Shown here in pieces: positions 34,192 through 61,467 of a stretch of DNA of 64,000 nt. This stretch comes from Fibrobacteria bacterium (GTDB lineage: Bacteria > Fibrobacterota > Fibrobacteria > UBA11236). The DNA lies in contig JANYDA010000029.1 of NCBI GenBank assembly GCA_025360005.1, positions 1 through 64,000 of the forward strand. The letters are read 5' to 3'. The position numbers and the translations under genes are program-made. The notes under the pieces are model-generated. The model saw nothing but the letters and a program-made list of their open reading frames with translations, searched no databases and was not told the DNA's origin. Each line of letters opens with the position of its first letter. Position 1 is the first letter of the stretch.

Positions 34192-34773
34192 ATGAATAGC
34201 ATGAATGAAGTCAAGAAGAGTTGGAGGAAAAGTCTGGCAGCCGTTCTTTTGGTCGCCACTGTGAGCGCTGTGCCCGTAAAGGCCGCTATCACGGCTGGGG
34301 GCGCCGTACCCCTGGAAAACTACTTCCAAGCTACCGGTAACGATGGCGTGGATGTAAAATCCGCCAACGCCGCGTTCACGACGAATATCTTAGGTACGGT
34401 TGTGATCCAGAATAATGCGCCGAATTCCTTTATATTCACCGTGACCCAGAGAAACGGCGGCTTCTTGCGGCTGGGTTTGGCAGCTGCCTTACCCGTGATC
34501 GCAACCGGCACCGGCAATCCCTTCACCGGATCGCAATTCATCCATTCCGCCACCCCCATGGGTACGGAAGTGGAGAATCTGACCACGGATGCGACAGTGG
34601 CAGTGGCCATTACCGCAGGCGCGGCCGGAGCGGGTACCCTTACCGGCGGCGCCCAGACGACTGCTCTGGTGGACTACAAAATCGACATCGGCGGCACCTG
34701 GATCGCCGCCCCGACTTTGTTGGCCGGGTATTATTCCGAAACCTTCACCATCACCCTCGTAGCAGTGATGTAA
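34192..34773 (+). CDS. Secreted pilin-like subunit 1
   Basis: Secreted protein of 193 aa with a signal peptide ending VKA (LAAVLLVATVSAVPVKA). The mature part is small, Gly/Ala/Thr-rich and predicted all-beta. It ends LLAGYYSETFTITLVAVM, reminiscent of the closing strand of chaperone-usher/spore-coat-U type subunits. A segment FTVTQRNGGFLRLGL matches in pattern FTFQNKGFFKVGS of the next gene's product. AAGGAGG lies 6 nt before the ATG, a strong RBS. A terminator follows directly, so this is likely the most abundant (major) fibre subunit. Identification as a pilin rests on fold-like patterns and on the chaperone and usher neighbours. Confidence 0.7.
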   Translation: MNSMNEVKKSWRKSLAAVLLVATVSAVPVKAAITAGGAVPLENYFQATGNDGVDVKSANAAFTTNILGTVVIQNNAPNSFIFTVTQRNGGFLRLGLAAALPVIATGTGNPFTGSQFIHSATPMGTEVENLTTDATVAVAITAGAAGAGTLTGGAQTTALVDYKIDIGGTWIAAPTLLAGYYSETFTITLVAVM

Positions 34774-34807
34774 TTCGGTTCCAGTTTCGGATTTATCAGC
34801 GATTAAA

Positions 34808-34836
34808 AGAAGGGACTACACAGTCCCTTCTTTTTT
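34808..34836 (+). terminator. Rho-independent terminator after subunit 1
   Basis: AGAAGGGACT (34808-34817) and AGTCCCTTCT (34822-34831) form a perfect 10-bp stem with a 4-nt loop, followed by six T residues (34831-34836). It separates the first subunit gene from the rest of the fibre locus. Confidence 0.9.
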
Positions 34837-34957
34837 ATGGTACTCTAAAATTACAACGAATGAGGAGGCGGTTGGTCGTGATTTCAACCCCTTGAAAAGC
34901 AATGAATGAGCCGCGGGGGGGTCGGCCTTCCGGATTGGAAAACCTAGAGAAGCAACC

Positions 34958-35455
34958 ATGCGTATAACCGCATTCATACTAGTAGCATTTTCCGCGCTCG
35001 CGGCTCCGATTGAAACCTCCGCGGACCTGGGTGACACCCCCCTGATCAACACCTACCAGGGGACGAGCAATATCAATCTCAATTTCACAAGCTCGGGCAC
35101 TCATCAGCAAATCGCCCTTTTCCTGATCAGCAGCAATGATCCCGCCGGCTTTCATGTTACGTTCACTTTCCAAAACAAGGGCTTTTTCAAAGTAGGCAGC
35201 CGGCAGTTCGCGATGACGAGCATCGTGCTCAATAAGGTGAGCGGAACTTTGGGGACCGGCCTAACGGAACCCGCGAATATGCCGATAACATTGGATGGGG
35301 CGGGGGCCTGGACATGGCATCCCACTCCGCCCGCGCCGACAACGGAAACCGATGGATACCTGGTTGAAATCGCCGTCGACTGGGCCAACCCTGCCACGGG
35401 TCTCGCGGGTTTTTACCAGGAGCGGATCACCTGTTCCGTTGCTTCAGGACCATAG
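34958..35455 (+). CDS. Secreted pilin-like subunit 2
   Basis: Secreted protein of 165 aa with a signal peptide (FILVAFSALAAPIETSA). The predicted all-beta mature domain has FHVTFTFQNKGFFKVGS and ends GLAGFYQERITCSV, parallel to the end of subunit 1 (LLAGYYSETFTI), which suggests the same fold and assembly route. RBS weak. It starts 122 nt past the terminator and lies 41 nt before the chaperone gene. Possibly a minor or adaptor subunit. Confidence 0.65.
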   Translation: MRITAFILVAFSALAAPIETSADLGDTPLINTYQGTSNINLNFTSSGTHQQIALFLISSNDPAGFHVTFTFQNKGFFKVGSRQFAMTSIVLNKVSGTLGTGLTEPANMPITLDGAGAWTWHPTPPAPTTETDGYLVEIAVDWANPATGLAGFYQERITCSVASGP

Positions 35456-35496
35456 AAACGGTACAATTACGCCGATCCAGAGTTGAAGGAGTGGAA

Positions 35497-36333
35497 ATGT
35501 ATTTCAGGATTTCTTTATGGGCCCTCACCTTGCTATCGATTGATCCTGCCATGGGAAGTTCCAGCTTCAATCTGACTCCATGGGTCCTGATTTTCGAGCC
35601 GCAAAACAAAATCATCAGCCAAACGGTTACCTTCAAATACCAATCCGACAAGGACTCGCATGACTCCAAAGTGCAAAGGCCTAGTCCTAAGGATGATCAA
35701 AATGCCCCCGTTCCGGTGGAAGTCACCTTAACCGCCAGGGAACTGGACCTTGATGGCAAAGTAATCTACCCCTCGTCCCAAGGCGCCGATGATTTCGTGG
35801 TCTATCCATCCCAGTTCATCCTATATCCAGGCGACGTTAAAAAGGTCCAGGTGCAATGGGTGGGTGCTAAGCTGCCCGATAGGGAGATCAGCATGGGATT
35901 CATCTCCACCCAATTGCCCTTGAAGTTCGACGGGAACCTGGAAGAGCCGAAGACAGCCATTACGATGGTGGAAATGATGACCCGATACGAAGGGATCATC
36001 GTCGTCCGTCCCCCGAATATCAAGCCCGGGGTGGTAGTGGACACCGCCTATTCGCGCCAGGACAGCGCCGGTACGCACATGGTCGTGATCCTAAACAACA
36101 AGGGCACGGGCATGCAGTCCCTTAAAAATATTGATTTCACAGTTGCTCCATTGGACAAAAACGGGAAAATCAAGTTCAATGAACGGATCGAGTTCAAGAA
36201 CAAAACCGTTTCCAACGCCACTAACCAAAGCCTCCTGGCAGGCTTCCGCCGAAAAGTGGAAGTGCCGTGGCCGGGTGGGTTCCCCGTAGGCCCTATCAAT
36301 GTGAGCGCGACCTTCATTGATACCCCGAAATAA
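35497..36333 (+). CDS. PapD-like periplasmic fimbrial chaperone
   Basis: Secreted protein of 278 aa with a signal peptide (FRISLWALTLLSIDPAMG). Domain 1 ends in the edge-strand pattern VVYPSQFILYPGDVKKVQVQ. It is followed by KLPDREISMGFISTQLPL, which matches the chaperone signature around the Arg of LP-x-DRE. Domain 2 is a second Ig-like fold (THMVVILNNKGTGMQSLKNI). In the chaperone-usher pathway it would hold subunits by donor-strand complementation in the periplasm and deliver them to the usher encoded next. ATG 35497 is chosen because AAGGAG lies 6 nt upstream; GTG 35491 is the alternative. Confidence 0.8.
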   Translation: MYFRISLWALTLLSIDPAMGSSSFNLTPWVLIFEPQNKIISQTVTFKYQSDKDSHDSKVQRPSPKDDQNAPVPVEVTLTARELDLDGKVIYPSSQGADDFVVYPSQFILYPGDVKKVQVQWVGAKLPDREISMGFISTQLPLKFDGNLEEPKTAITMVEMMTRYEGIIVVRPPNIKPGVVVDTAYSRQDSAGTHMVVILNNKGTGMQSLKNIDFTVAPLDKNGKIKFNERIEFKNKTVSNATNQSLLAGFRRKVEVPWPGGFPVGPINVSATFIDTPK

Positions 36334-36425
36334 ATATCAAGCCCGAATCCGCACGGGCGCGGCAAAAATTTCTGGGAGGCTGAAAAGACAGTAACGCAAA
36401 GGATACCCCCTTTCCGCTAAGCAAA

Positions 36426-39400
36426 ATGGCAGTCAAAACCATTTTTACCCTATTCTCGCTTGCACTGGCAATGGGAATTCCCCGGATTGCTTCCGCCGCG
36501 GGGGAACGGGAAGAAGCTATAACCAATATCGAAGTTTCCATTGTGATTGACGGAAAACCGATTTCTGAAACTTGGATCAACCTTTCTGCGGGAGGAACCG
36601 GCATCGAGATTCCCGCGGCCCCCGTCCTTTCCGCCTTAAAGAATATGGTTTCCCAGGAAACCATCCGGAGCTTAGAAAGCCAGATCACCGTCAACGGGAC
36701 TTTCACAAACAAAATCCTGGCCCGCTTCGGGGTTACCCTGGGAATCAACGTGCCCATGCGCCAGGTTTATCTGGCAACCCGCAAATCAGCCCTGAAGATG
36801 AAAACGGAAACCGCCCGGTCCTCCTCTCCCGTAGCGGCCCCCGATTCCGGCCATGCCGACACTTTGCGCGCCGCGGCTAAACCCGGAAAAGCCAAGGATT
36901 CCGCCGGACCATGGACCTCACCGCCTGTTCCTCCGCTGCCGGGCCGCATCGTGGATACGCCGCCCACCCCAAAACCGGTGGACCAGGTTCATGCACAGGC
37001 ATCCAACGGCGGGGGGGGAGAGACGTATCCCTTGACGGATACTAGCTGGGAGCCCATGCGCGAAGATACCTCCCGTGCCGGGGCGCCCCAATCCACCGGC
37101 AGTCCCGGAAATCCCAGTGTACAGTTGAAGACCTATCGGCTGGATCGGACCAGAGAAGAATTGTTCGAGGATGTCTTCAAGCGTAAGGCGCCTCCCCTCC
37201 CAGCCAGCGTGGAGGTAACCTTGCTCGTCGATGGTAAATCGTACGGAACGCTTTGGATCCTATACAACGAAGCGCAAAAGCGCTACACCTTTCCGGTAGA
37301 TCCGGTGCTGAACGCCTTACAGGGCCTGGTCCGCCCCGACCTCTGGGAGAAATTGGCGGCGCGCGCAAAGGCCCAAAGCCGCTTCACGGTGGAAGACCTT
37401 ATCGCATGCGGGTTTCCCACAGTTTTGAATACCACCGTCTTTGAATTGTCTACGGGGGTTCCCGCCCAATTGTTGGGTTCAAAAATGCATCCCGTGGCCG
37501 GCCAGGTGATCGATCCGTACACTGTGCCCGCCTATGAACCGGGTTGGCTCAGCGCTTTCATAAATACCCGCATCCGAGAAAGGTTACCATACTACCAATA
37601 CAATCCCAGCCCTTTTGATACCAATGGATTTGGGAAACTCCAAGTGGAGGCTAGAAACCAGGAGCCGCGCGAACCCGTCAATGTGGATCTCGATGGCGCC
37701 ATCAACCTCAAAACCTGGGTGGTTGAAGGCAGGGCCAGCCTTTTGGAGAAGCCAGTGGAAAACCGCGTAGACGTTCACCGTCAGGATATACGTTTGGTTC
37801 ATGATTGGCCCAAGCAGTCTTTGCGCCTCAATGTCGGCGACTTGATCTTCCCCACTACCGGATTCCAGAGTTTTTGGAACCTGGGAGGCGTTGGACTCTC
37901 CCGCGACTTTTCCCTGCAACCGCACCTGGTGGCCTACCCCGTCAAGGATTTTGAATTCTTCCTCACCAATCCTTCGGAAGTAAGGGTCTTCATCAATGGC
38001 GTGCTCCGGGGAACATTTCAATTGGAGCAAGGAACCCATGATCTGCAGGGATTTCCCTTTACGGCGGGGGAAAGCGAGGTGGAAATAAAAATAACCGACA
38101 ATACCGGCCAGACGCAAACGCTCAATTTCGATTTCATCCACGAACCGAGTCTTCTGGCCAAGGGCATCTCCGCATTCTCCTTCAATGTGGGTTTCCCCAG
38201 CCGTGATATTTACAATCCGACTCAGAATTCATCTTATCCCGATAAATCGGTGTTATGGAACTATGAGTATGATCAGGGCAATCCGGCTCTCTTTTTGGAT
38301 TACAAACTCGGAATGTCCAACAGCCTAACCATGGAAGCCTATTCCCAGGCGATGGATACCGTGGGAATGATAGGCTTGGATCTGCTGCAAGCGATAAAAA
38401 TCGGCAAGATTAAAACCGACCTCGCCGGAAGCTATCACCATCGTGACGAATTCGCCTGGGCTGGGAACCTGGAATACACCTACATTCCCAAGATCACCAG
38501 TGACGTCTCCCCTACAAGCTGGAGGATCAAAAGCGAATATATTGAAAAGGGGTTTTACCGGCTGGGACAGGATTCCGCTTACCTTGGAGCGCTGAGTTTA
38601 GCGGGATCATTCCAAAAGTATACGCAAATCCTCAATCTGAACTTGGGCGCATCCTATGTTTTGAGGCTGCACAATCCCGACTTCTACAACTTGTACGCGG
38701 GCTTAAGCCGTAGCTGGCCCAAAGGCTGGTCTTCCTCACTCACCTTTAAGAACACCTTCGATCGTGCCAAGTCCACCAACACCTCGGTGGCAGCGACCCT
38801 TAACTATTTCTTCAATTTCGATGTGCAGTCCTTCAACGCATCGGAACGGGTGGAAAACCACCAAGTGGACGGATCCGAAAAAGGTACGCCCCCGAATTGG
38901 GACTACTCGACCGATCTGCTATGGGACTATAACGGCGCGGCGCCATTTCCGCATAACCCCTCATTGAATATGACGACCAATTTCGGCCCTAACAGCAACG
39001 ACTATTCGGCCCGGGCGCAATGGAATGGAAACCAAGGGACCGCGGAGATCATGGGTCGACGCTATGAGCCGAAAACGCAATCCATAATCACCAACTATGC
39101 GGACCTGACCTTGCAATCTTCGCTCATTTTTGTCGACGGGAATTTCGCCCTTTCCCGGCCTGTCCGGAACAGTTTTGTGATGGTCAAAGGGATTGAGAAT
39201 GAGGAAGCCTGCGATATCCTGGTGAATCCAAATGAAATGGGTTACGATGCGAAGAGTTCAAATTGGTTTCCCGGAGTCGTCCCCACTGTAAGCCCGTACT
39301 ATCTCAAGAAAATCCATTTGGAAGTGCAAGATCCACCGCTGGGATCCAACGATGACCGCACCGATTTCACCATTTACCCGGGGTATAAGAGCGGCTACGC

Positions 39401-39692
39401 GATTTATATGGGAACCAAGTCCACCATTATCGCGCTGGGAACCCTAATGTTGGGCCAGGAAAAACCCGCCGAGTACCAGACTTTCCAGGCTATACCTTTG
39501 GGCGGAGAAACAAGGGACCCGGTTGTAGGCTTTACCAATAAAGTTGGGAAATTCCAATTGACCAGAATGCAACCCGGCAAGTACAGGATTGAAATGTATG
39601 TCGACGGAAAGGCTTACGCCACCACGATGTCACTGCCGAAGAAATCTGAAGGCATAACTACGCTTGGCACTTTGCTGCTGGCTCCCAGATAA
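36426..39692 (+). CDS. Fimbrial usher-like outer membrane protein with duplicated N-terminal domain
   Basis: Outer membrane assembly platform of 1088 aa with a signal peptide (FSLALAMGIPRIASA). Residues 35-122 and 261-349 are two related copies of a domain (EVSIVIDGKPISETW and EVTLLVDGKSYGTLW), joined by a Pro/Ser-rich linker of about 130 residues. The beta-barrel part begins near 370 and shows usher-like motifs (SLRLNVGDLIFPTTGFQSFW, LSRDFSLQPHLVAYP, VRVFINGVLRGTFQLEQGTH). The C-terminus is an Ig-like carboxypeptidase-regulatory type domain (VGFTNKVGKFQLTRMQPGKY). Larger than typical ushers (800-870 aa) mainly because of the doubled N-terminus. Lower GC than the flanks. No good RBS is visible at 36426. 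Confidence 0.8.
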   Translation: MAVKTIFTLFSLALAMGIPRIASAAGEREEAITNIEVSIVIDGKPISETWINLSAGGTGIEIPAAPVLSALKNMVSQETIRSLESQITVNGTFTNKILARFGVTLGINVPMRQVYLATRKSALKMKTETARSSSPVAAPDSGHADTLRAAAKPGKAKDSAGPWTSPPVPPLPGRIVDTPPTPKPVDQVHAQASNGGGGETYPLTDTSWEPMREDTSRAGAPQSTGSPGNPSVQLKTYRLDRTREELFEDVFKRKAPPLPASVEVTLLVDGKSYGTLWILYNEAQKRYTFPVDPVLNALQGLVRPDLWEKLAARAKAQSRFTVEDLIACGFPTVLNTTVFELSTGVPAQLLGSKMHPVAGQVIDPYTVPAYEPGWLSAFINTRIRERLPYYQYNPSPFDTNGFGKLQVEARNQEPREPVNVDLDGAINLKTWVVEGRASLLEKPVENRVDVHRQDIRLVHDWPKQSLRLNVGDLIFPTTGFQSFWNLGGVGLSRDFSLQPHLVAYPVKDFEFFLTNPSEVRVFINGVLRGTFQLEQGTHDLQGFPFTAGESEVEIKITDNTGQTQTLNFDFIHEPSLLAKGISAFSFNVGFPSRDIYNPTQNSSYPDKSVLWNYEYDQGNPALFLDYKLGMSNSLTMEAYSQAMDTVGMIGLDLLQAIKIGKIKTDLAGSYHHRDEFAWAGNLEYTYIPKITSDVSPTSWRIKSEYIEKGFYRLGQDSAYLGALSLAGSFQKYTQILNLNLGASYVLRLHNPDFYNLYAGLSRSWPKGWSSSLTFKNTFDRAKSTNTSVAATLNYFFNFDVQSFNASERVENHQVDGSEKGTPPNWDYSTDLLWDYNGAAPFPHNPSLNMTTNFGPNSNDYSARAQWNGNQGTAEIMGRRYEPKTQSIITNYADLTLQSSLIFVDGNFALSRPVRNSFVMVKGIENEEACDILVNPNEMGYDAKSSNWFPGVVPTVSPYYLKKIHLEVQDPPLGSNDDRTDFTIYPGYKSGYAIYMGTKSTIIALGTLMLGQEKPAEYQTFQAIPLGGETRDPVVGFTNKVGKFQLTRMQPGKYRIEMYVDGKAYATTMSLPKKSEGITTLGTLLLAPR

Positions 39693-39716
39693 GACTGCCT
39701 TGACCGTGCCGGTCTT

Positions 39717-40232
39717 TCAATAGGCCGAGGGCATGCTGACAATGAGCCGTGGCGCATCCGCCTCCGGTCCGGTCGGCTTCGCAAAGGATCTTTTATAGGT
39801 GACGATCACTTTCATCCTGTATCCGATGGTCGCGGTCTCCTGCGGCCCGGGCTTCCATAGAAATCGCCCGCTTGATCTTCCAGGCTCCAAAGCAGATTCA
39901 TCCGGCGCCCGCAAGCCGTGTCCCAATATCCCGTCAATGCCTTCCAGCCTCACTTCGGAAACCTCATGACCGCCGCCATTCGCCTCCGAAAACTCGAACT
40001 CGAGCTCGTACTCGGGGAGATTGTTGTCGATTTCGATGACGGCAACCTCGGTGGCCTGCTCGTTCCCGGTCCGATCCGCCGCCTGCTTGGGGGTCACGAT
40101 CAGGCTGCGTTGCTCCGGCACATAGGCGCAGGCGACTAGTGAATTTGCGAATGTGTGGGGATGCGCGGCAAGGAGGATCCATAGCGCCGCCGGGATCGTT
40201 TTCAAGCGTTGAAAGCCGCGGTAAAACTTCAT
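39717..40232 (-). CDS. Secreted subunit-like protein 3, convergent with usher
   Basis: Secreted protein of 171 aa with a signal peptide ending TFA (IPAALWILLAAHPHTFA). The mature part is all-beta-like with YELEFEFSEANGGGHEVSE, parallel to the FTFQNKG and FTVTQRNGG segments of subunits 1 and 2. It ends TIGYRMKVIVTYKR followed by a Pro-rich tail. AAGGAG lies 10 nt before the ATG. It faces the usher gene with 24 bp between stops, so it is expressed separately. Probably a third fibre component such as a tip adhesin or alternative subunit; this is inference from pattern and position only. Confidence 0.6.
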   Translation of the reverse strand: MKFYRGFQRLKTIPAALWILLAAHPHTFANSLVACAYVPEQRSLIVTPKQAADRTGNEQATEVAVIEIDNNLPEYELEFEFSEANGGGHEVSEVRLEGIDGILGHGLRAPDESALEPGRSSGRFLWKPGPQETATIGYRMKVIVTYKRSFAKPTGPEADAPRLIVSMPSAY

Positions 40233-40462: not shown

Positions 40463-41284
40463 TTGATCACTATCCGCCAATATGCCCCCGGAGAAGCCAT
40501 CATCAAGGAGCACGAGTCCGGAGAGACGGCATTCCTGATTGAACGCGGCAAAGTGGAGGTGACCATGGAGTCGGGCGGGAAGCCCATCCATATCGCCTTC
40601 CTGGAAGCGGGGGCGACCTTCGGGGAAATGAGCATGGTGGACGATTCCCCCCGTAGCGCCACGGTTACGGCCGTGGAGGATACCCTGGTACGGGAAATCC
40701 ATCGCGACAACATCTTCGGGACCCTGAAGGAAAATCCGGACGCCGTAGTCAAGCTCCTGCAGAACATCTTCGAGCGGCTGCGGGAAGCCAATATCCGCCT
40801 GGCCCAGCTGGAATGCGCGGGGCCGACCCATGCGCTCCGGCCGGGTATCGCCGCTCCGCAGCCGGCGATAGACGCTGAGGCCGCGCCGGAGCGCTTCAAC
40901 CCGGCCGGGGAAAAACGACAGCTCTATTCCATCGAAGGCCTCACTCCCCAGGCCGTAGAGGCCATGTCCGACAATCCCTTCAACTTCTCGACCTTCCCGA
41001 TCAAGATAGGCCGTAAGAGCAACGACCCGCTGGTGAGCAACCACCTGGAGATTTCCGATCGGGACCCTTTGCAGATTTCCCGGCATCATGTCAGCATAGT
41101 CTGCGAGCATGGAAAAATAGGCGTGGTGGACAGGGGCAGTAAATTGGGAGCGCTGGTGGACGGAACACGCGTGGGAGGCAAAAAGCACGGCCCGGGACCC
41201 GTTTTCTTCAGTGGGGCGGAAGGCATCCTGGTGCTGGGCACCGACGCCTCGCCGTATCGCTACAAGGTGATGAAAGCTTCCTAG
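40463..41284 (+). CDS. Cyclic-nucleotide-binding domain fused to an FHA-like domain
   Basis: Cytoplasmic protein of 273 aa. Residues 1-115 form a cNMP-binding beta-roll (AFLIERGKVEVTMESGGKPI, GATFGEMSMVDDSPRSATVT with the phosphate-binding cassette). The C-terminal ~110 residues are an FHA-type phosphothreonine-binding fold (FPIKIGRKSNDP, ISRHHVSIVCEHGKIGVVDR, SKLGALVDGTRVG). No DNA-binding domain is seen, so it is not a CRP-type regulator. It would link cyclic nucleotide or other ligand binding to phospho-protein recognition. It starts with TTG at 40463, preceded by GGGAGA 8 nt upstream; no earlier start is in frame. Confidence 0.85.
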   Translation: MITIRQYAPGEAIIKEHESGETAFLIERGKVEVTMESGGKPIHIAFLEAGATFGEMSMVDDSPRSATVTAVEDTLVREIHRDNIFGTLKENPDAVVKLLQNIFERLREANIRLAQLECAGPTHALRPGIAAPQPAIDAEAAPERFNPAGEKRQLYSIEGLTPQAVEAMSDNPFNFSTFPIKIGRKSNDPLVSNHLEISDRDPLQISRHHVSIVCEHGKIGVVDRGSKLGALVDGTRVGGKKHGPGPVFFSGAEGILVLGTDASPYRYKVMKAS

Positions 41285-56477: not shown

Positions 56478-58216
56478 GCCGTCTCCCGGATCACTTCTTC
56501 CAGGGAGGTCAACCCCGCCCCTGCCTTGGCCATACCATCTTCGCGCAAACCCAACATCCCTTCCTTGACGGCCAACTCCCTGATTCGGGCCGTGTCCTTC
56601 TTCGCCGTGATCAGCGAACGTATCCCCTCGGTTACCGGCATGATCTCATAGAGCCCGATGCGGCCCATATAGCCGGTACGGTTGCACAGATGGCATCCCC
56701 TGCCGCGTCCAGCGCCGATGCTTCCCACGCCTACGTTCCCTGCGCCCACGTTTCCCGCGCCGGTGCTTCCCCCGCCGCCGACAATCGGCGCTTCCGCGCA
56801 ATGCGGGCAAACCTTCCGCACCAACCGTTGCGCCCCTATCAAGGTCAAAGCCGAAGCCAGCAGGAAAGGCTCGATGCCCATGTCCAGCAGGCGCGCCACC
56901 GCTCCCGGCGCATCGTTGGTATGCAAGGTGGAAATCACCAGATGCCCGGTCAAAGCCGCGCGCACGGCGATCTCGGCGGTTTCCCTATCGCGGATCTCCC
57001 CCACCATGATCACATTCGGGTCCTGCCGCAAAATGGTCCGCAATGCATTCGCAAAGGTATAGTCCACCTCCGCCTTCACCGCCGTTTGCGTGATGCCGTC
57101 CAACTTGTATTCGATGGGATCCTCTACGGTAACGATATTGGTTTCCGGGGACTTGATCCTGTTCAGGCAGCTATACAAAGTGGTAGTCTTCCCCGCGCCG
57201 GTGGGCCCCGTCATCAGGATCATCCCGTACGGCAGCTTCAAGGCCCGTTCCAAATGCCCCAAGCTATTCTCGTCCAGGCCCAGCTTCGCCAAATCCAAAG
57301 CCACCGCGCCCTTGTCGAGAATGCGCAGCACCACCTTCTCGCCATGTTCCGTCGGCAAGGTGGACACGCGCACGTCGATGCCCTGCCCGGATCCTTCCAT
57401 GCGGATGCGCCCATCCTGGGGCCGGCGCCGCTCCGCGATATCCATGTTGGCCATGATTTTGAGGCGGGAAACCACTTCCGCCTTGGAACGCGCATTGATG
57501 GTCCGATGCACCCGCAGCACGCCGTCCTGGCGCAAGCGCACCTTCAGCTCCCGCTCGAAGGGCTCGAAATGGATGTCCGAGGATCCCGCATGGATGGCCT
57601 CGGAAATGATCTCGTTGACCAACCGCACGATGGGGCTGTCCGCTTCGCCGGATTTGGAGGCCGGCCGCACCGGACCGCGCAGCCTGCCCGCGGACCCTTC
57701 CGCGTTCCCCGCGCCTTCGGCTCCGGAAGCGCCCGTAACTCCGCCGTTACCCGGGCCGCCTTTGCCCGTGGCCGCGCTGAAGTCCACGTAGGCTCCGCCC
57801 TGATTGCCGTTCCCGGCCTTGGAATGCTTGGCGATCAGCTTCTCGATCGATTCCCTGTCCGCCGCCACCGGGATTATCGGCGCGCCGGAAAGCAAATGCA
57901 AATCCAGCAGCACGTCCAGATCGGTGGGATCGATCAGGGCCACTTTCAATTTATCGCCCACCCACTCCAGCGGCATCACCGTATAGGTGCGGATGGCCTC
58001 GGAGGGAAACGCGCGCAGCACGTCCCCGCTGGGATTGTAAGCGAGGATGTCTTCCGCAACGACATTCAACTCCTCGCGCAAGAGCCGCGTGACCGCTTCT
58101 GCCTGCGTATTCCCGAAAGACCGCTCCAGGTTTTCCGCCAGGCTGTCCCCGCTTACGCGCAAGTCCGCCAAAGCGGCCTTGATGCCGGATTCCAAATCCA
58201 CGCTTCCGCCCTTCAT
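56474..58216 (-). CDS. gspE: Secretion/pilus assembly ATPase (GspE/PilB family)
   Basis: Cytoplasmic hexameric ATPase of 580 aa that powers pseudopilin assembly. An N-terminal GspE/PilB helper domain leads to a Gly/Ala-rich linker, then the T2SSE core with Walker A (MTGPTGAGKTTTLYSCLN), the Asp box (NIVTVEDPIEYKLDG), Walker B (NVIMVGEIRDRETAEIAVRA) and the His box. The zinc-binding CxxC pairs (CPHC and CHLC) are split by a Gly-rich insert of about 30 residues with GAGNVGAGNVG repeats, which is unusual. I chose ATG 58216 because it overlaps the preceding TGA (ATGA); the longer frame opens at 58252. Confidence 0.94.
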   Translation of the reverse strand: MKGGSVDLESGIKAALADLRVSGDSLAENLERSFGNTQAEAVTRLLREELNVVAEDILAYNPSGDVLRAFPSEAIRTYTVMPLEWVGDKLKVALIDPTDLDVLLDLHLLSGAPIIPVAADRESIEKLIAKHSKAGNGNQGGAYVDFSAATGKGGPGNGGVTGASGAEGAGNAEGSAGRLRGPVRPASKSGEADSPIVRLVNEIISEAIHAGSSDIHFEPFERELKVRLRQDGVLRVHRTINARSKAEVVSRLKIMANMDIAERRRPQDGRIRMEGSGQGIDVRVSTLPTEHGEKVVLRILDKGAVALDLAKLGLDENSLGHLERALKLPYGMILMTGPTGAGKTTTLYSCLNRIKSPETNIVTVEDPIEYKLDGITQTAVKAEVDYTFANALRTILRQDPNVIMVGEIRDRETAEIAVRAALTGHLVISTLHTNDAPGAVARLLDMGIEPFLLASALTLIGAQRLVRKVCPHCAEAPIVGGGGSTGAGNVGAGNVGVGSIGAGRGRGCHLCNRTGYMGRIGLYEIMPVTEGIRSLITAKKDTARIRELAVKEGMLGLREDGMAKAGAGLTSLEEVIRETA

Positions 58217-60270
58217 CGCAGTACGAACTGGTTCTTGGGATTGCGCTGCCAAACCGGTTTGCCATGGTATAAGACGCCGTTCATGTCCACGCGGATGGCC
58301 GTGGCGGTGAGAATGGTGGGCAGTTTATAATCCACGCGGCCGATCTTGGAATCACTCCAACTCCAAACCAGCACGCTGGAGTTTTTTTCGGCATTGAAAT
58401 AAAGAGCAGGGACGGGGGGATTCGCCCCCCAATCGAACCTGGGCGCGGCCGGATCCGTAAGGTTGGGGTAAAAAGACACCGACAAGGAATCCCTGCCGCT
58501 CGATTCCACGTTCAATGAATCAGTGGGATTGAACTTGGTGATCTTCGCGTAAACCTGGGGGCCCATGGCTTGTTCCAGCGCATCCAGGCTGGTGTCCGGA
58601 TAGGTCTTGCCCGCATGCTTGGGAACGATGCGGAAATAAATCCTGCCCCCGGAGGTTTTGAACGGCAGCGCCGGCTTCCCATTCGCATCGCGCGAAGTGG
58701 AATACATATCCGAGAAATTAAGGGTAACGGAATCGGCAAAGCCGGGTGCGGTGCCCCACAAGGACCAACTGGGCACGGTAACTCCGCCATCCTGGTAATA
58801 GATCTGCAAACTATCCGCCTTGTGGCTGCTATCCGCTCCCCAGCCCCATTTCAGGCGGGCGAATTGACTGGAGGAATCCGCCTTGGGACTGGTGTTGCTG
58901 TCCGTCTCCGCGAATCCGGAATAAGTCCCGGAATTAAAATATGCGAAGCCGATGTTCCGGGGCAATGACACCGCCGAGTCCACGCCCACGCTGTCCGGCA
59001 CGGAAAAAATCCCCCGCAAAACCTTCACGCTATCGCCGGGCCGCGTAAAATATTGGCCCGCCCCATTGCGCAAGCTCAATGCATACTCGTACTTTTTTCC
59101 GCGCGTCCACTTGGCATCCTTGAGCCACAGCTTCAATTGGGTATGTTCGCCGTTCCAAGCCGTATCCGCCAGCAATTGCGTTTGGTTGATCAACCTCACC
59201 TGATAGACGTCCACCACTTCCACTTTCTGGCTGAAGCGGAAAAACAACGAGTCCCGCACGCCCAAGGTGTCCTTGGGACCGTCCACCAAGGTGGGCTGGG
59301 TGGAATCGGAACCCATCACCAAAGTCACGGAAGGCAAAGGCCCATCCTGCATCACCTCTTCCTTCAATATCGGAACGGCTTTCAATGCCTCCACCGAAAC
59401 TCGATCTTTATAGTACAGGATTTGCCCATCCAAAGCGGGCACGCTGTCCAATACGAACCGGCCCTGGCCATCCGGGTTCCCGGACGTGAACGTAATGAAG
59501 GTATCCGGCACGGCGAGCGAGTCTTTCAACATGAAGATCACCTTTGCGCCCAGCAAGGGCTTGGCGACGGTGGCGGTGGCATAGGAAACCTGACCCGTAA
59601 TCTGGTTGCCTAAAGGAATCAAGGTGACCACATTCACGGGAACCCGCGACGTATCAGAAACCCGATCCACGCTCACCTCCATCTTACGCCCCAGATAACC
59701 GGGATGCCTCACTATCACGATGCTCTTTCCGATCGGCAACCCGAACAGCCCGATGGATCCCGTTTCACCGGTATCCGAAACTATCCTCGATTCTCCCGTG
59801 CTGTCCTCGTATTGGACGGTGGCTTTTTTCAATTTGGCCAGGCCCGCATCTCGGAAAATCAAAATGGTTTGGGCGCGCCCCACCGCAGCCGTTCCCAACC
59901 TGGTCATTTTGATCCGCAGCAAGCGGGCCAGGGAGCGATGGAAGACGGAATCGATCGGCGAATTGACGGTGTCGATCGAGTCCCGGGTATTATAGCCCTT
60001 GCGGCTCAATTCAAATAAGGTGCGCGAACTCGCCAAAGTGGGCAATTGCGCGCGGCCCTGGTCGGAACTGGTGGTGACGGTCAGGGTATCGCCGGTGATG
60101 GTGGTGACGTGGATGACAACGGAATCCAACGGAGCGGCGGTGGAGCTATCGGTGACCAGGAAGACGTAGTCTACGGAGGGCTGATCCTTGGCGGAGTTTA
60201 AATCCTGGTCGCAGGAAAGCCAGATTAGGGCAAGGGGCAACAGGATGAGCTTGGGCAGGGATAACCGCAT
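58213..60270 (-). CDS. Large lipoprotein heading the secretion operon
   Basis: Lipoprotein of 685 aa with a lipobox (LALIWLSC, Cys20). The N-terminal part contains carboxypeptidase-regulatory-like/Ig-like repeats (STAAPLDSVVIHVTTITGDT, GNQITGQVSYATATVAKPLL). A middle Big-like domain (VRDSLFFRFSQKVEVVDVYQ) and a C-terminal region without recognised domain follow. I chose ATG 60270 with AGGT 7 nt upstream. It is the first gene of the nine-gene operon and overlaps the ATPase gene by 4 nt, so it is probably a component or main substrate of the machine (inference). Such a leader is not part of standard T2SS or T4P operons. Confidence 0.83.
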   Translation of the reverse strand: MRLSLPKLILLPLALIWLSCDQDLNSAKDQPSVDYVFLVTDSSTAAPLDSVVIHVTTITGDTLTVTTSSDQGRAQLPTLASSRTLFELSRKGYNTRDSIDTVNSPIDSVFHRSLARLLRIKMTRLGTAAVGRAQTILIFRDAGLAKLKKATVQYEDSTGESRIVSDTGETGSIGLFGLPIGKSIVIVRHPGYLGRKMEVSVDRVSDTSRVPVNVVTLIPLGNQITGQVSYATATVAKPLLGAKVIFMLKDSLAVPDTFITFTSGNPDGQGRFVLDSVPALDGQILYYKDRVSVEALKAVPILKEEVMQDGPLPSVTLVMGSDSTQPTLVDGPKDTLGVRDSLFFRFSQKVEVVDVYQVRLINQTQLLADTAWNGEHTQLKLWLKDAKWTRGKKYEYALSLRNGAGQYFTRPGDSVKVLRGIFSVPDSVGVDSAVSLPRNIGFAYFNSGTYSGFAETDSNTSPKADSSSQFARLKWGWGADSSHKADSLQIYYQDGGVTVPSWSLWGTAPGFADSVTLNFSDMYSTSRDANGKPALPFKTSGGRIYFRIVPKHAGKTYPDTSLDALEQAMGPQVYAKITKFNPTDSLNVESSGRDSLSVSFYPNLTDPAAPRFDWGANPPVPALYFNAEKNSSVLVWSWSDSKIGRVDYKLPTILTATAIRVDMNGVLYHGKPVWQRNPKNQFVLR

Positions 60271-60378
60271 GATAGTACCTGGGTTGGAAAGATAGCTAAG
60301 GGAAAGGTACAAAGGGGGGCGGGGGTGTCAAGCGGATGGGGGGTGGGAGAAACCTGTACCACGCGAGACCCCAACTTT

Positions 60379-60463: not shown

Positions 60464-61108
60464 TCAGTGAGAAGAAGGGGAAAGTGATTCTCCAACACTC
60501 AATGACAAACCAGCCTTTTCGCCATTACCCCACGTATTAAAGCCAAGCTTCCCCGCAGCTCCAATTTCAATTTTTCCCCCCGCAACCAATCCATATGATT
60601 GGGTACCAGAACTCCCAAAAGTTATTCCAGCCCCGTAAGATTGCTCTAATCCCCAGTATGGTCCGCTGACTTGACCGGCTGAAACAGAAGGGCTCCACGA
60701 GAAGTAAGGCTCACCTGTTTTTGAAATTTCATGCAATCCACCAAATGCATATTCATCTACGGCATAAAGTACATCGGCAGCAAGGCCCCATAGCTCAGAA
60801 GCGCCTGCATCATGCGATGATTCAGATTGGGCCCTTAACCAGCGATTAACATTAAAATCCCATGATTCAGAAACAACACTTTGACCAACCGTAGTTGTTC
60901 GAACTTCAGATATGTCGAGCCGTCCATCCGGATCCACCGAGTTCACCGGATTTGATCCATAAGAGTAAGGACTTGCAAACTGCCTAGCTGGATCGGGTGA
61001 TATCCATACTTCGACAGATCTCCCGCCATCTATAGGTAACTTTGGAGTTACTGGGCTGGGCTTTGCAGCGAAGCAGGTGGCGAGGAGGAAGAGGGAATTG
61101 GTGAACAT
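60464..61108 (-). CDS. RHS-repeat-type C-terminal fragment with possible signal peptide
   Basis: The reading frame carries the RHS core end motif (WISPDPARQFASPYSYGSNP, then VNSVDPDG), followed by a unique ~130-residue C-terminus rich in Gly/Ser. The upstream YD-repeat body of an RHS protein is missing. From ATG 61108 the N-terminus (MFTNSLFLLATCFAAKP) looks like a signal peptide, so it may be a short secreted protein; GGAG lies very close to the ATG. The open frame continues to 61303. Either a displaced RHS C-terminal (toxin-like) module or a remnant. AT-richer than the neighbours. Confidence 0.55.
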   Translation of the reverse strand: MFTNSLFLLATCFAAKPSPVTPKLPIDGGRSVEVWISPDPARQFASPYSYGSNPVNSVDPDGRLDISEVRTTTVGQSVVSESWDFNVNRWLRAQSESSHDAGASELWGLAADVLYAVDEYAFGGLHEISKTGEPYFSWSPSVSAGQVSGPYWGLEQSYGAGITFGSSGTQSYGLVAGGKIEIGAAGKLGFNTWGNGEKAGLSLSVGESLSPSSH

Positions 61109-61467
61109 CTCTCCGGTGGGAGAGGTCAGGTAGAGGCTTTGGGTCTGGTCCTGGATCACGGTCTCAAAGGTAGATACTGGAGTCCATTTCCACCTCCCGC
61201 CCCCCCACGCGGGCCGCTGACGCGGCGGGGTGTTCCTCGCTCCGGCCTCCCCGCTCGTCACACCCCAGAGCCCGGCCGGGCAGTCCGTCCCGATGCTACG
61301 CATCGGTCCTTGCCATAATGCCTTTTACGCGAACCCGCCGAGCGGGTCCGGCTCTTTCCAGACCTTCGCGTAAAAGGCATTATGCCAACTGGCCGGCTCC
61401 GGATACGCAGCGGCCCCTGGCCGCCGCTATCCCGGGCTCTCCGCGCGCCACCCCACCCGGGAGGAAC
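61109..61467. other. Gene-free interval holding a long inverted repeat
   Basis: No credible gene lies between the RHS fragment and the PIN toxin gene. The clear feature is the 71-bp inverted repeat at 61314-61384. Runs of GC-rich sequence around 61195-61300 include further short palindromes. The frame of the RHS fragment extends into the left part without a start. Confidence 0.55.
61314..61384. repeat. Perfect 20-bp inverted repeat, 71 bp element
   Basis: Left arm 61314-61333 (cataatgccttttacgcgaa) is exactly complementary to the right arm 61365-61384. The 31-nt interior contains its own hairpin CCCGC-CGA-GCGGG. No coding capacity. It could be a miniature inverted-repeat element, a recombination site that folds as single-stranded DNA, or a strong transcript hairpin downstream of the PIN gene. 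Confidence 0.75.

What the first reader, a model, noticed from the sequence alone, without database searches (positions are those of the whole stretch)
34192..40232. An atypical chaperone-usher fibre system in a probable Fibrobacterota genome
A compact AT-richer locus encodes three signal-peptide, all-beta, subunit-like proteins (34192, 34958, 39717), a PapD-like chaperone with the LP-x-DRE motif, and a 1088-aa usher-like protein. The subunits share patterns such as F-x-F/V-x3-N-G/K-G and end strands LAG(Y/F)YxE but do not match pilin families I can name. Lower GC than the flanks and the gene-free border suggest horizontal acquisition. This is the strongest candidate for an undescribed surface system here.
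Basis: partly seen in the sequence, partly recalled or inferred. Interest (0 to 1): 0.75.

Follow-up and report, generated by a model that had tools for sequence, protein, structure and literature searches.

The report
Divergent Fibrobacterota chaperone-usher fibre operon
Five neighbouring genes in this Fibrobacterota bacterium most likely build a hair-like surface fibre by the known chaperone-usher route, in a far-diverged version whose chaperone lacks the residues that known chaperones use to hold fibre subunits and whose outer-membrane pore protein carries its docking domain twice.

Summary
All five genes are where stated, and relatives show a conserved four-gene order (subunit, subunit, chaperone, usher) in several Fibrobacterota families and on a cyanobacterial plasmid. 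Usher: profile-profile match to six E. coli K-12 ushers (99.6%, 728 columns); the top 18 Foldseek hits are FimD/PapC. Chaperone: carries the proline invariant in all such chaperones; its only chaperone hits in the PDB profile search are non-classical (CfaA, CsuC; weak). Subunits match no Pfam model but share the C-terminal AG-x-Y-x-(D/E) strand with spore-coat-U pilins. The system is a new variant of the non-classical chaperone-usher kind, not a new category. Two departures stand out. (1) Fibrobacterota chaperones lack Arg89 (0 of 20) and mostly have Ser where Tyr196 sits; in known archaic/alternative chaperones these residues hold the subunit C-terminus. The classical Arg/Lys pair is not evident either. 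(2) The window genus has two tandem usher N-terminal domains; a second lineage has the same duplication. A terminator-like hairpin follows subunit gene 1 in five of seven loci, with a weaker hairpin in the other two, marking it as the likely major pilin. Horizontal acquisition is plausible, not proven. Fibre formation is inferred.

The parts
34192..34773 (+). sub1: signal-peptide, all-beta subunit, 193 aa; probable major pilin
   Evidence: homologous to sub2 (phmmer E about 1e-8); orthologs first in the operon in the related loci; C-terminal LAGYYSE strand shared with SCPU-type pilins
34805..34834 (+). terminator-like hairpin (13-bp stem, 4-nt loop, then U run) between sub1 and sub2; probable partial terminator setting a high pilin:chaperone/usher ratio
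   Evidence: z -4.8; hairpin at the same place in all six relatives, long and U-tailed in four of them, weaker in L031 and L033
34958..35455 (+). sub2: second subunit, 165 aa, better conserved than sub1; probable minor or tip/base pilin
   Evidence: AlphaFold2 model pLDDT 76, eight strands; Foldseek not significant, DraE/DaaE pilins among top 50
35491..36333 (+). periplasmic chaperone (ATG start probably 35497); invariant Pro106, Tyr166; Gly136 at the CsuC Arg89 position, Ser at the CsuC Tyr196 position (residue numbers from the GTG at 35491)
36426..39692 (+). outer-membrane usher, 1088 aa
36519..36770 (+). usher residues 32-115: extra, first copy of the N-terminal docking domain
   Evidence: hhalign 97.4%, E 1.2e-11 against the second copy; hmmsearch 3e-8 against best shuffle 0.19
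37188..37460 (+). usher residues 255-345: the N-terminal domain common to the whole family
37548..39134 (+). usher residues 375-903: beta-barrel region with inserted plug (about 510-570); roughly 24 strand segments in a low-confidence model
39216..39689 (+). usher residues 931-1088: C-terminal beta domains (carboxypeptidase-regulatory-like matches in homologues)
39717..40232 (-). sub3: convergent, divergent subunit paralog, 171 aa, without the LAGxYxE end; present in all three locus-bearing genomes of the genus, not found in the loci of other families

Best explanation
A non-classical chaperone-usher fibre system. Sub1, sub2 and sub3 cross the inner membrane by Sec. The periplasmic chaperone lends its G1 strand to each incomplete Ig-like subunit, with the donor motif starting at an invariant Tyr as in archaic chaperones. 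The complexes dock on the usher's N-terminal domain(s). Donor-strand exchange links subunits and the fibre leaves through the usher's plugged barrel. Sub1 is the main subunit: it comes first, has the strongest ribosome-binding site and is followed by a terminator-like hairpin. Sub2 is a minor subunit; sub3 is an accessory one of this genus. The fibre probably serves attachment. Shown by sequence: homology of usher and chaperone, gene order, subunit family, hairpin, duplicated docking domain, loss of the known anchor residues. Inferred: fibre formation, strand exchange, subunit roles, adhesion, and that another invariant residue pair (for example Arg83 and/or Arg254) now holds the subunit end.
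For: Usher: hhalign 99.6%, E 3e-24, 728 columns against six K-12 ushers; Foldseek top 18 all FimD/PapC, best E 2.5e-26; 8 of 20 homologues hit PF00577 and congeneric G158 passes its cut-off. Chaperone: PapD_N in 13 of 20; its only chaperone hits in the PDB profile search are CfaA and CsuC; superfamily-invariant Pro in 20/20, G1 Tyr in 20/20. Operon order conserved within the phylum and on a Leptolyngbya plasmid whose chaperone and usher NCBI already names. Subunits: homologous to one another; family profile hits the Leptolyngbya subunit at 5e-9; the neighbouring Leptolyngbya subunit and the Indioceanicola one hit SCPU at 3e-4 and 5e-4; C-terminal A-G-x-Y-x-(D/E) shared. Hairpin after sub1 in seven of seven loci, long and U-tailed in five.
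Against: The window's own chaperone and subunits reach no curated family cut-off. The chaperone's profile hits are weak (PDB E 0.02-0.25; hhalign about 80%). The subunit model has no significant fold match. The usher model is low confidence (pLDDT 56). No two-domain tip adhesin is present. No expression, microscopy or binding data exist.
Confidence: 0.87

Rival explanations
1. A plain archaic-type (spore-coat-U-like) chaperone-usher system that has only drifted in sequence; the missing anchor residues are misalignment or silently compensated, and the second usher N-terminal domain has no role.
For: Closest solved chaperones include archaic CsuC; relatives with the same operon carry SCPU-like subunits; drift is large everywhere in the family.
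Against: The Arg89 column is clean in most relatives outside the phylum (Leptolyngbya, Indioceanicola, Niveispirillum, one Vibrio chaperone, Acinetobacter, Sphingobium, EcpB, EcpE; not the second Vibrio chaperone or Novosphingobium) but 0 of 20 in Fibrobacterota, and the Tyr196 column there is Ser in most rows, never Tyr. The usher tree puts SCPU-type ushers with classical ones, apart from this clade. The extra N-terminal domain is kept in all three congeners and appears again in another lineage.
Confidence: 0.4
2. A secretion or coat system: the usher exports subunits that form a shapeless coat or capsule-like layer, not a fibre, as spore coat protein U of Myxococcus or the F1 capsule do.
For: All subunits are small single-domain proteins and there is no two-domain adhesin; an F1 capsule-anchoring usher domain is the best PDB profile hit of the usher alignment (E 0.004).
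Against: Capsule-like layers such as F1 are themselves donor-strand polymers (own knowledge), so the mechanism would be the same; nothing here separates them.
Confidence: 0.25
3. A decayed or silent locus.
For: Patchy presence: 3 of 6 genomes of the genus and 22 of 168 of the phylum.
Against: All five frames are intact in the window and in both congeners, with conserved invariant residues after about 40% divergence.
Confidence: 0.03

Closest known systems
Chaperone-usher locus of Leptolyngbya sp. BL0902 plasmid (NZ_CP046158.1, 803-5577)
   Same: Same order: two small secreted proteins, chaperone, usher; usher 28.6% identical over 842 aa; its chaperone carries the G1 Tyr, the D2 Arg and the invariant Pro
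   Different: Usher has one N-terminal domain (860 aa); chaperone keeps the F1 Arg; no sub3; NCBI names the chaperone and usher but leaves both subunits 'hypothetical'
Archaic (sigma) chaperone-usher pili, e.g. Csu of Acinetobacter (CsuC/CsuD, PMC4654587, PMC9452303)
   Same: Chaperone profile hits CsuC; G1 donor motif begins with Tyr; pilins end in a G-x-Y-x-D/E strand
   Different: Anchor Arg89 and Tyr196 replaced; subunits below SCPU detection; no CsuE-like two-domain tip; usher falls in a separate clade
Alternative (alpha) chaperone-usher pili: ECP of E. coli K-12, CFA/I-type (CfaA, PMC4133393)
   Same: Chaperone profile hits CfaA; D2 motif (L/M)xxGxxRRF-like as in EcpB; 2 of 20 usher homologues hit TcfC (PF16967)
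   Different: One chaperone gene, not two as in ECP; no EcpD-like adhesin; non-classical Arg missing; EcpC aligns only over 170 columns (39.7%)
Classical pili (type 1, P): FimC/FimD, PapD/PapC
   Same: Whole-length usher architecture; gene layout pilin, gap, second pilin, chaperone, usher as in fimA-fimI-fimC-fimD
   Different: Neither residue of the classical R8/K112 pair is evident in the family; subunits unrelated to FimA by profile (6.2%)

Membership tests
Chaperone-usher pathway (superfamily) | Outer-membrane usher with N-terminal domain, plugged barrel and C-terminal domains | tested here: met
   24 strands only consistent
Chaperone-usher pathway (superfamily) | Two-domain periplasmic chaperone with the one proline invariant in the superfamily (Pro59 of CsuC, PMC4654587) | tested here: met
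   Pro in 20/20 and 16/16 rows; PapD_N in 13/20
Chaperone-usher pathway (superfamily) | Secreted subunits with incomplete Ig fold and N-terminal donor strand | tested here: inconclusive
   all-beta model, Foldseek not significant; motif and operon evidence only
Chaperone-usher pathway (superfamily) | Surface fibre built by donor-strand exchange | not testable with these tools
   needs expression and microscopy
Archaic/alternative (non-classical) chaperones | Conserved F1-strand Arg (Arg89 of CsuC/EcpB), called the most characteristic feature (PMC4654587) | tested here: not met
   0 of 20: G x8, then T, T, I, S, L, L, L, S, F, S, F, V
Archaic/alternative (non-classical) chaperones | D2 Tyr (Tyr196 of CsuC, Tyr169 of EcpB) holding the subunit carboxylate | tested here: not met
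   Mostly Ser, otherwise Ala or Lys, in the 20 Fibrobacterota rows; Asn in the cyanobacterial and two alphaproteobacterial relatives; Tyr in archaic-type and Ecp chaperones
Archaic chaperones | Donor motif starting at Tyr116 of CsuC | tested here: met
   Tyr in 20/20 at the aligned position
Archaic (sigma) pili | SCPU-domain (PF05229) subunits | tested here: not met
   no SCPU match in 17 subunits or in the genome (whose controls also stayed silent); relatives' subunits do match weakly
Classical chaperones | Arg8/Lys112 (PapD numbering) carboxylate anchor | tested here: not met
   neither position aligns to a conserved basic residue in A2 against K-12 chaperones (weak alignment)
Classical pili | FimA-like subunits | tested here: not met
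   hhalign 6.2%

The most novel reading that the evidence does not exclude
Fibrobacterota chaperone-usher systems form a distinct class in which the chaperone holds subunits by a new anchor, neither the classical Arg/Lys pair nor the non-classical Arg/Tyr pair, and in the window's genus the usher has two tandem docking domains that could hold two chaperone-subunit complexes at once and so change the order or speed of assembly.
Probability: 0.4. Interest if true: 0.65.

Novelty: new variant of a known kind. Interest (0 to 1): 0.5.

Why it matters
Chaperone-usher ushers had been tabulated for Proteobacteria, Spirochaetes, Cyanobacteria and Deinococcus-Thermus (PMC4827864; PMC4654587 for the archaic type); my searches of open papers found none reported for Fibrobacterota, a phylum known for attachment to plant fibre (own knowledge). 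The system is nearly invisible to curated models: Pfam Usher passes its cut-off in 3 of 168 genomes while a search with this usher finds 22. If the loss of both known carboxylate-anchor residues is functional, it makes directly testable whether that anchor is needed to hold unfolded pilins. If the doubled docking domain works, it gives a natural experiment on how ushers order subunits.

Tried and rejected
Pfam/NCBIfam on the five window proteins: nothing over cut-off. Single-protein PDB searches: nothing. Structure prediction was fed only with the window and loci fetched by the search for related loci, as its stated rule asks. Idea that the family is limited to Fibrobacterota: rejected after the plasmid search. 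Idea that low GC alone proves transfer: rejected, GC3 only about 0.6-1.7 sd low and less so in congeners. Idea that LPDRE is a chaperone signature: rejected, not conserved. Rfam: no RNA family over its gathering score in the window; a sub-threshold STnc50 match (E 0.004) covers only the hairpin region. The consensus terminator scan missed the hairpin; folding found it. Sub3 as a tip adhesin: considered, no receptor domain, unsupported. Literature searches for Fibrobacter chaperone-usher systems and for duplicated usher N-terminal domains found nothing relevant.

Full report
What is there. The locus is at 51.5-55% GC against about 61%; GC3 of its genes is 0.63-0.71 against a mean of 0.75. The window covers nearly all of one contig of a 4.98-Mb assembly that holds this usher once.

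Relatives. A protein search of 168 genomes of the phylum finds the usher in 22, in 10 of 41 genera, including 3 of 6 members of the window's own genus. Named records of the same loci are MAGs of Fibrobacteres (RYN_348, RYN_349, fen_1185), Fibrobacter sp. (AS06), Chitinivibrionales and Candidatus Raymondbacteria, so the phylum call is right. In the loci closest to the window's (three of the genus, four from three other families) the order is subunit, subunit, chaperone, usher; an eighth is cut by a contig end. Sub3 is present, convergent, in all three locus-bearing genomes of the genus and was not found in the loci of other families. All subunits belong to one family: sub1 against sub2 in the window E about 1e-8, sub3 against a sub2 relative 7e-8.

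The usher. Pfam finds nothing in the window's copy, but 8 of 20 homologues hit PF00577, and the 59%-identical copy of G158 passes its curated cut-off. Profile against profile, the family matches six E. coli K-12 ushers at 99.6%, E 3e-24, over 728 columns. An AlphaFold2 model from eight sequences is poor (pLDDT 56), yet its first 18 Foldseek hits are all FimD or PapC, best E 2.5e-26. About six strand segments before and eighteen after the plug region fit a 24-strand barrel, but that model cannot settle the count. The usher carries its N-terminal domain twice, residues 32-115 and 255-345: 97.4%, E 1.2e-11; a profile built without the genus finds the extra copy at 3e-8 where 1,000 shuffled sequences give at best 0.19. 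All three congeners have it, and a distant lineage (L046) has the same arrangement at 7e-13.

The chaperone. 13 of 20 homologues hit PapD_N, best 6e-5. The only chaperones of this kind that the family profile finds in the PDB are non-classical, CfaA and CsuC, weakly (E 0.02-0.25). The one proline said to be invariant in the whole superfamily (PMC4654587) is present in 20 of 20. The donor strand starts with a Tyr in 20 of 20, aligned to CsuC Tyr116, which marks the shifted register of archaic chaperones. But the F1 Arg (Arg89 in CsuC and EcpB), called the most characteristic feature of non-classical chaperones, is absent in 20 of 20 (Gly in the eight closest), and the D2 Tyr that shares its work is mostly Ser and never Tyr. 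The cyanobacterial and two alphaproteobacterial relatives keep the Arg but have Asn for the Tyr; archaic-type and Ecp chaperones have both. The classical pair (PapD R8/K112) is not evident either. Arg83 and Arg254 are invariant and are candidates for a replacement; this is inference from alignments at 15-35% identity.

The subunits. No Pfam model covers them. The sub2 model is all beta (pLDDT 76); Foldseek gives nothing significant, with the chaperone-usher pilins DraE and DaaE among other beta folds in the top 50. The link to pilins rests on operon position, on homology to the Leptolyngbya subunit (E 5e-9 in a small database), on weak SCPU matches of the neighbouring Leptolyngbya subunit and of the Indioceanicola one (3e-4, 5e-4), and on the shared C-terminal A-G-x-Y-x-(D/E) strand. 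A hairpin lies between sub1 and sub2: 13-bp stem with U run in the window, z -4.8, and at the same place in all six relatives examined; those of L034, L035, L036 and L052 are long with U-rich tails, those of L031 and L033 weaker. It fits a partial terminator after the major pilin.

Wider kin and classification. The usher finds matches on 85 plasmids. The best, on a Leptolyngbya plasmid, has the same four-gene order, with chaperone and usher already named by NCBI's pipeline. So the family is wider than Fibrobacterota. In the usher tree the window's clade (89/98), a second Fibrobacterota clade, a cyanobacterial/alphaproteobacterial/Vibrio group and a group of SCPU-type plus classical ushers stand apart; the deep forks are unresolved and EcpC is a very long branch. 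I therefore call it a non-classical chaperone-usher system that is not a proven member of either the archaic or the alternative family. CFA/I-type ushers were not fetched as a yardstick because they lie on a pathogen's virulence plasmid.

Mobility. In G159 the locus sits beside the same cyclic-nucleotide-binding/FHA gene and CstA gene as in the window. In G158 the NADH dehydrogenase - GNAT - cNMP/FHA - CstA block is intact but holds a 466-aa gene instead, and the five-gene cassette lies on another contig among other genes. In G156 the block lacks both the locus and the cNMP/FHA gene. Three congeners have no copy. The cassette has thus moved or been lost and regained as a unit; no mobile element or donor was identified.

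Noticed in passing
60467-61303 (-): 278-aa ORF with the lowest GC3 of the window (0.466) and a PYSYGSNPVNSVDPDG stretch typical of the end of RHS-repeat cores; no Pfam match. Looks like an RHS remnant with a foreign C-terminal tail.
   Followed up: partly
40463-41284 (+): Cyclic-nucleotide-binding plus FHA domain protein directly beside the locus; kept beside it in G159, but in G158 it stays with CstA while the locus lies elsewhere. Could be a regulator or only a neighbour.
   Followed up: partly
L038, L039-L043, L046-L050 (families f4 and f7 of the phylum): A second, distant clade of Fibrobacterota chaperone-usher loci with unnamed subunits; L042 carries two chaperone genes and several subunit-like genes.
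   Followed up: partly
L046 (G044:C146), residues about 141-225 of its usher: Duplicated usher N-terminal domain in a lineage far from the window's genus, so the duplication arose more than once or is old.
   Followed up: yes
L033, L035, L037 ushers, C-terminus: Extra C-terminal carboxypeptidase-regulatory-like domain repeats lengthen these ushers to 1165-1280 aa.
   Followed up: no
L101 (NZ_CP046158.1) 803-1942: Two 'hypothetical' proteins before a cyanobacterial chaperone-usher pair are probable pilins (the second hits SCPU at 3e-4, just under its cut-off) and could be renamed.
   Followed up: partly
58216-60312 (-): Large secreted protein with a sub-threshold carboxypeptidase-regulatory-like match, in a second low-GC stretch of the window.
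   Followed up: no
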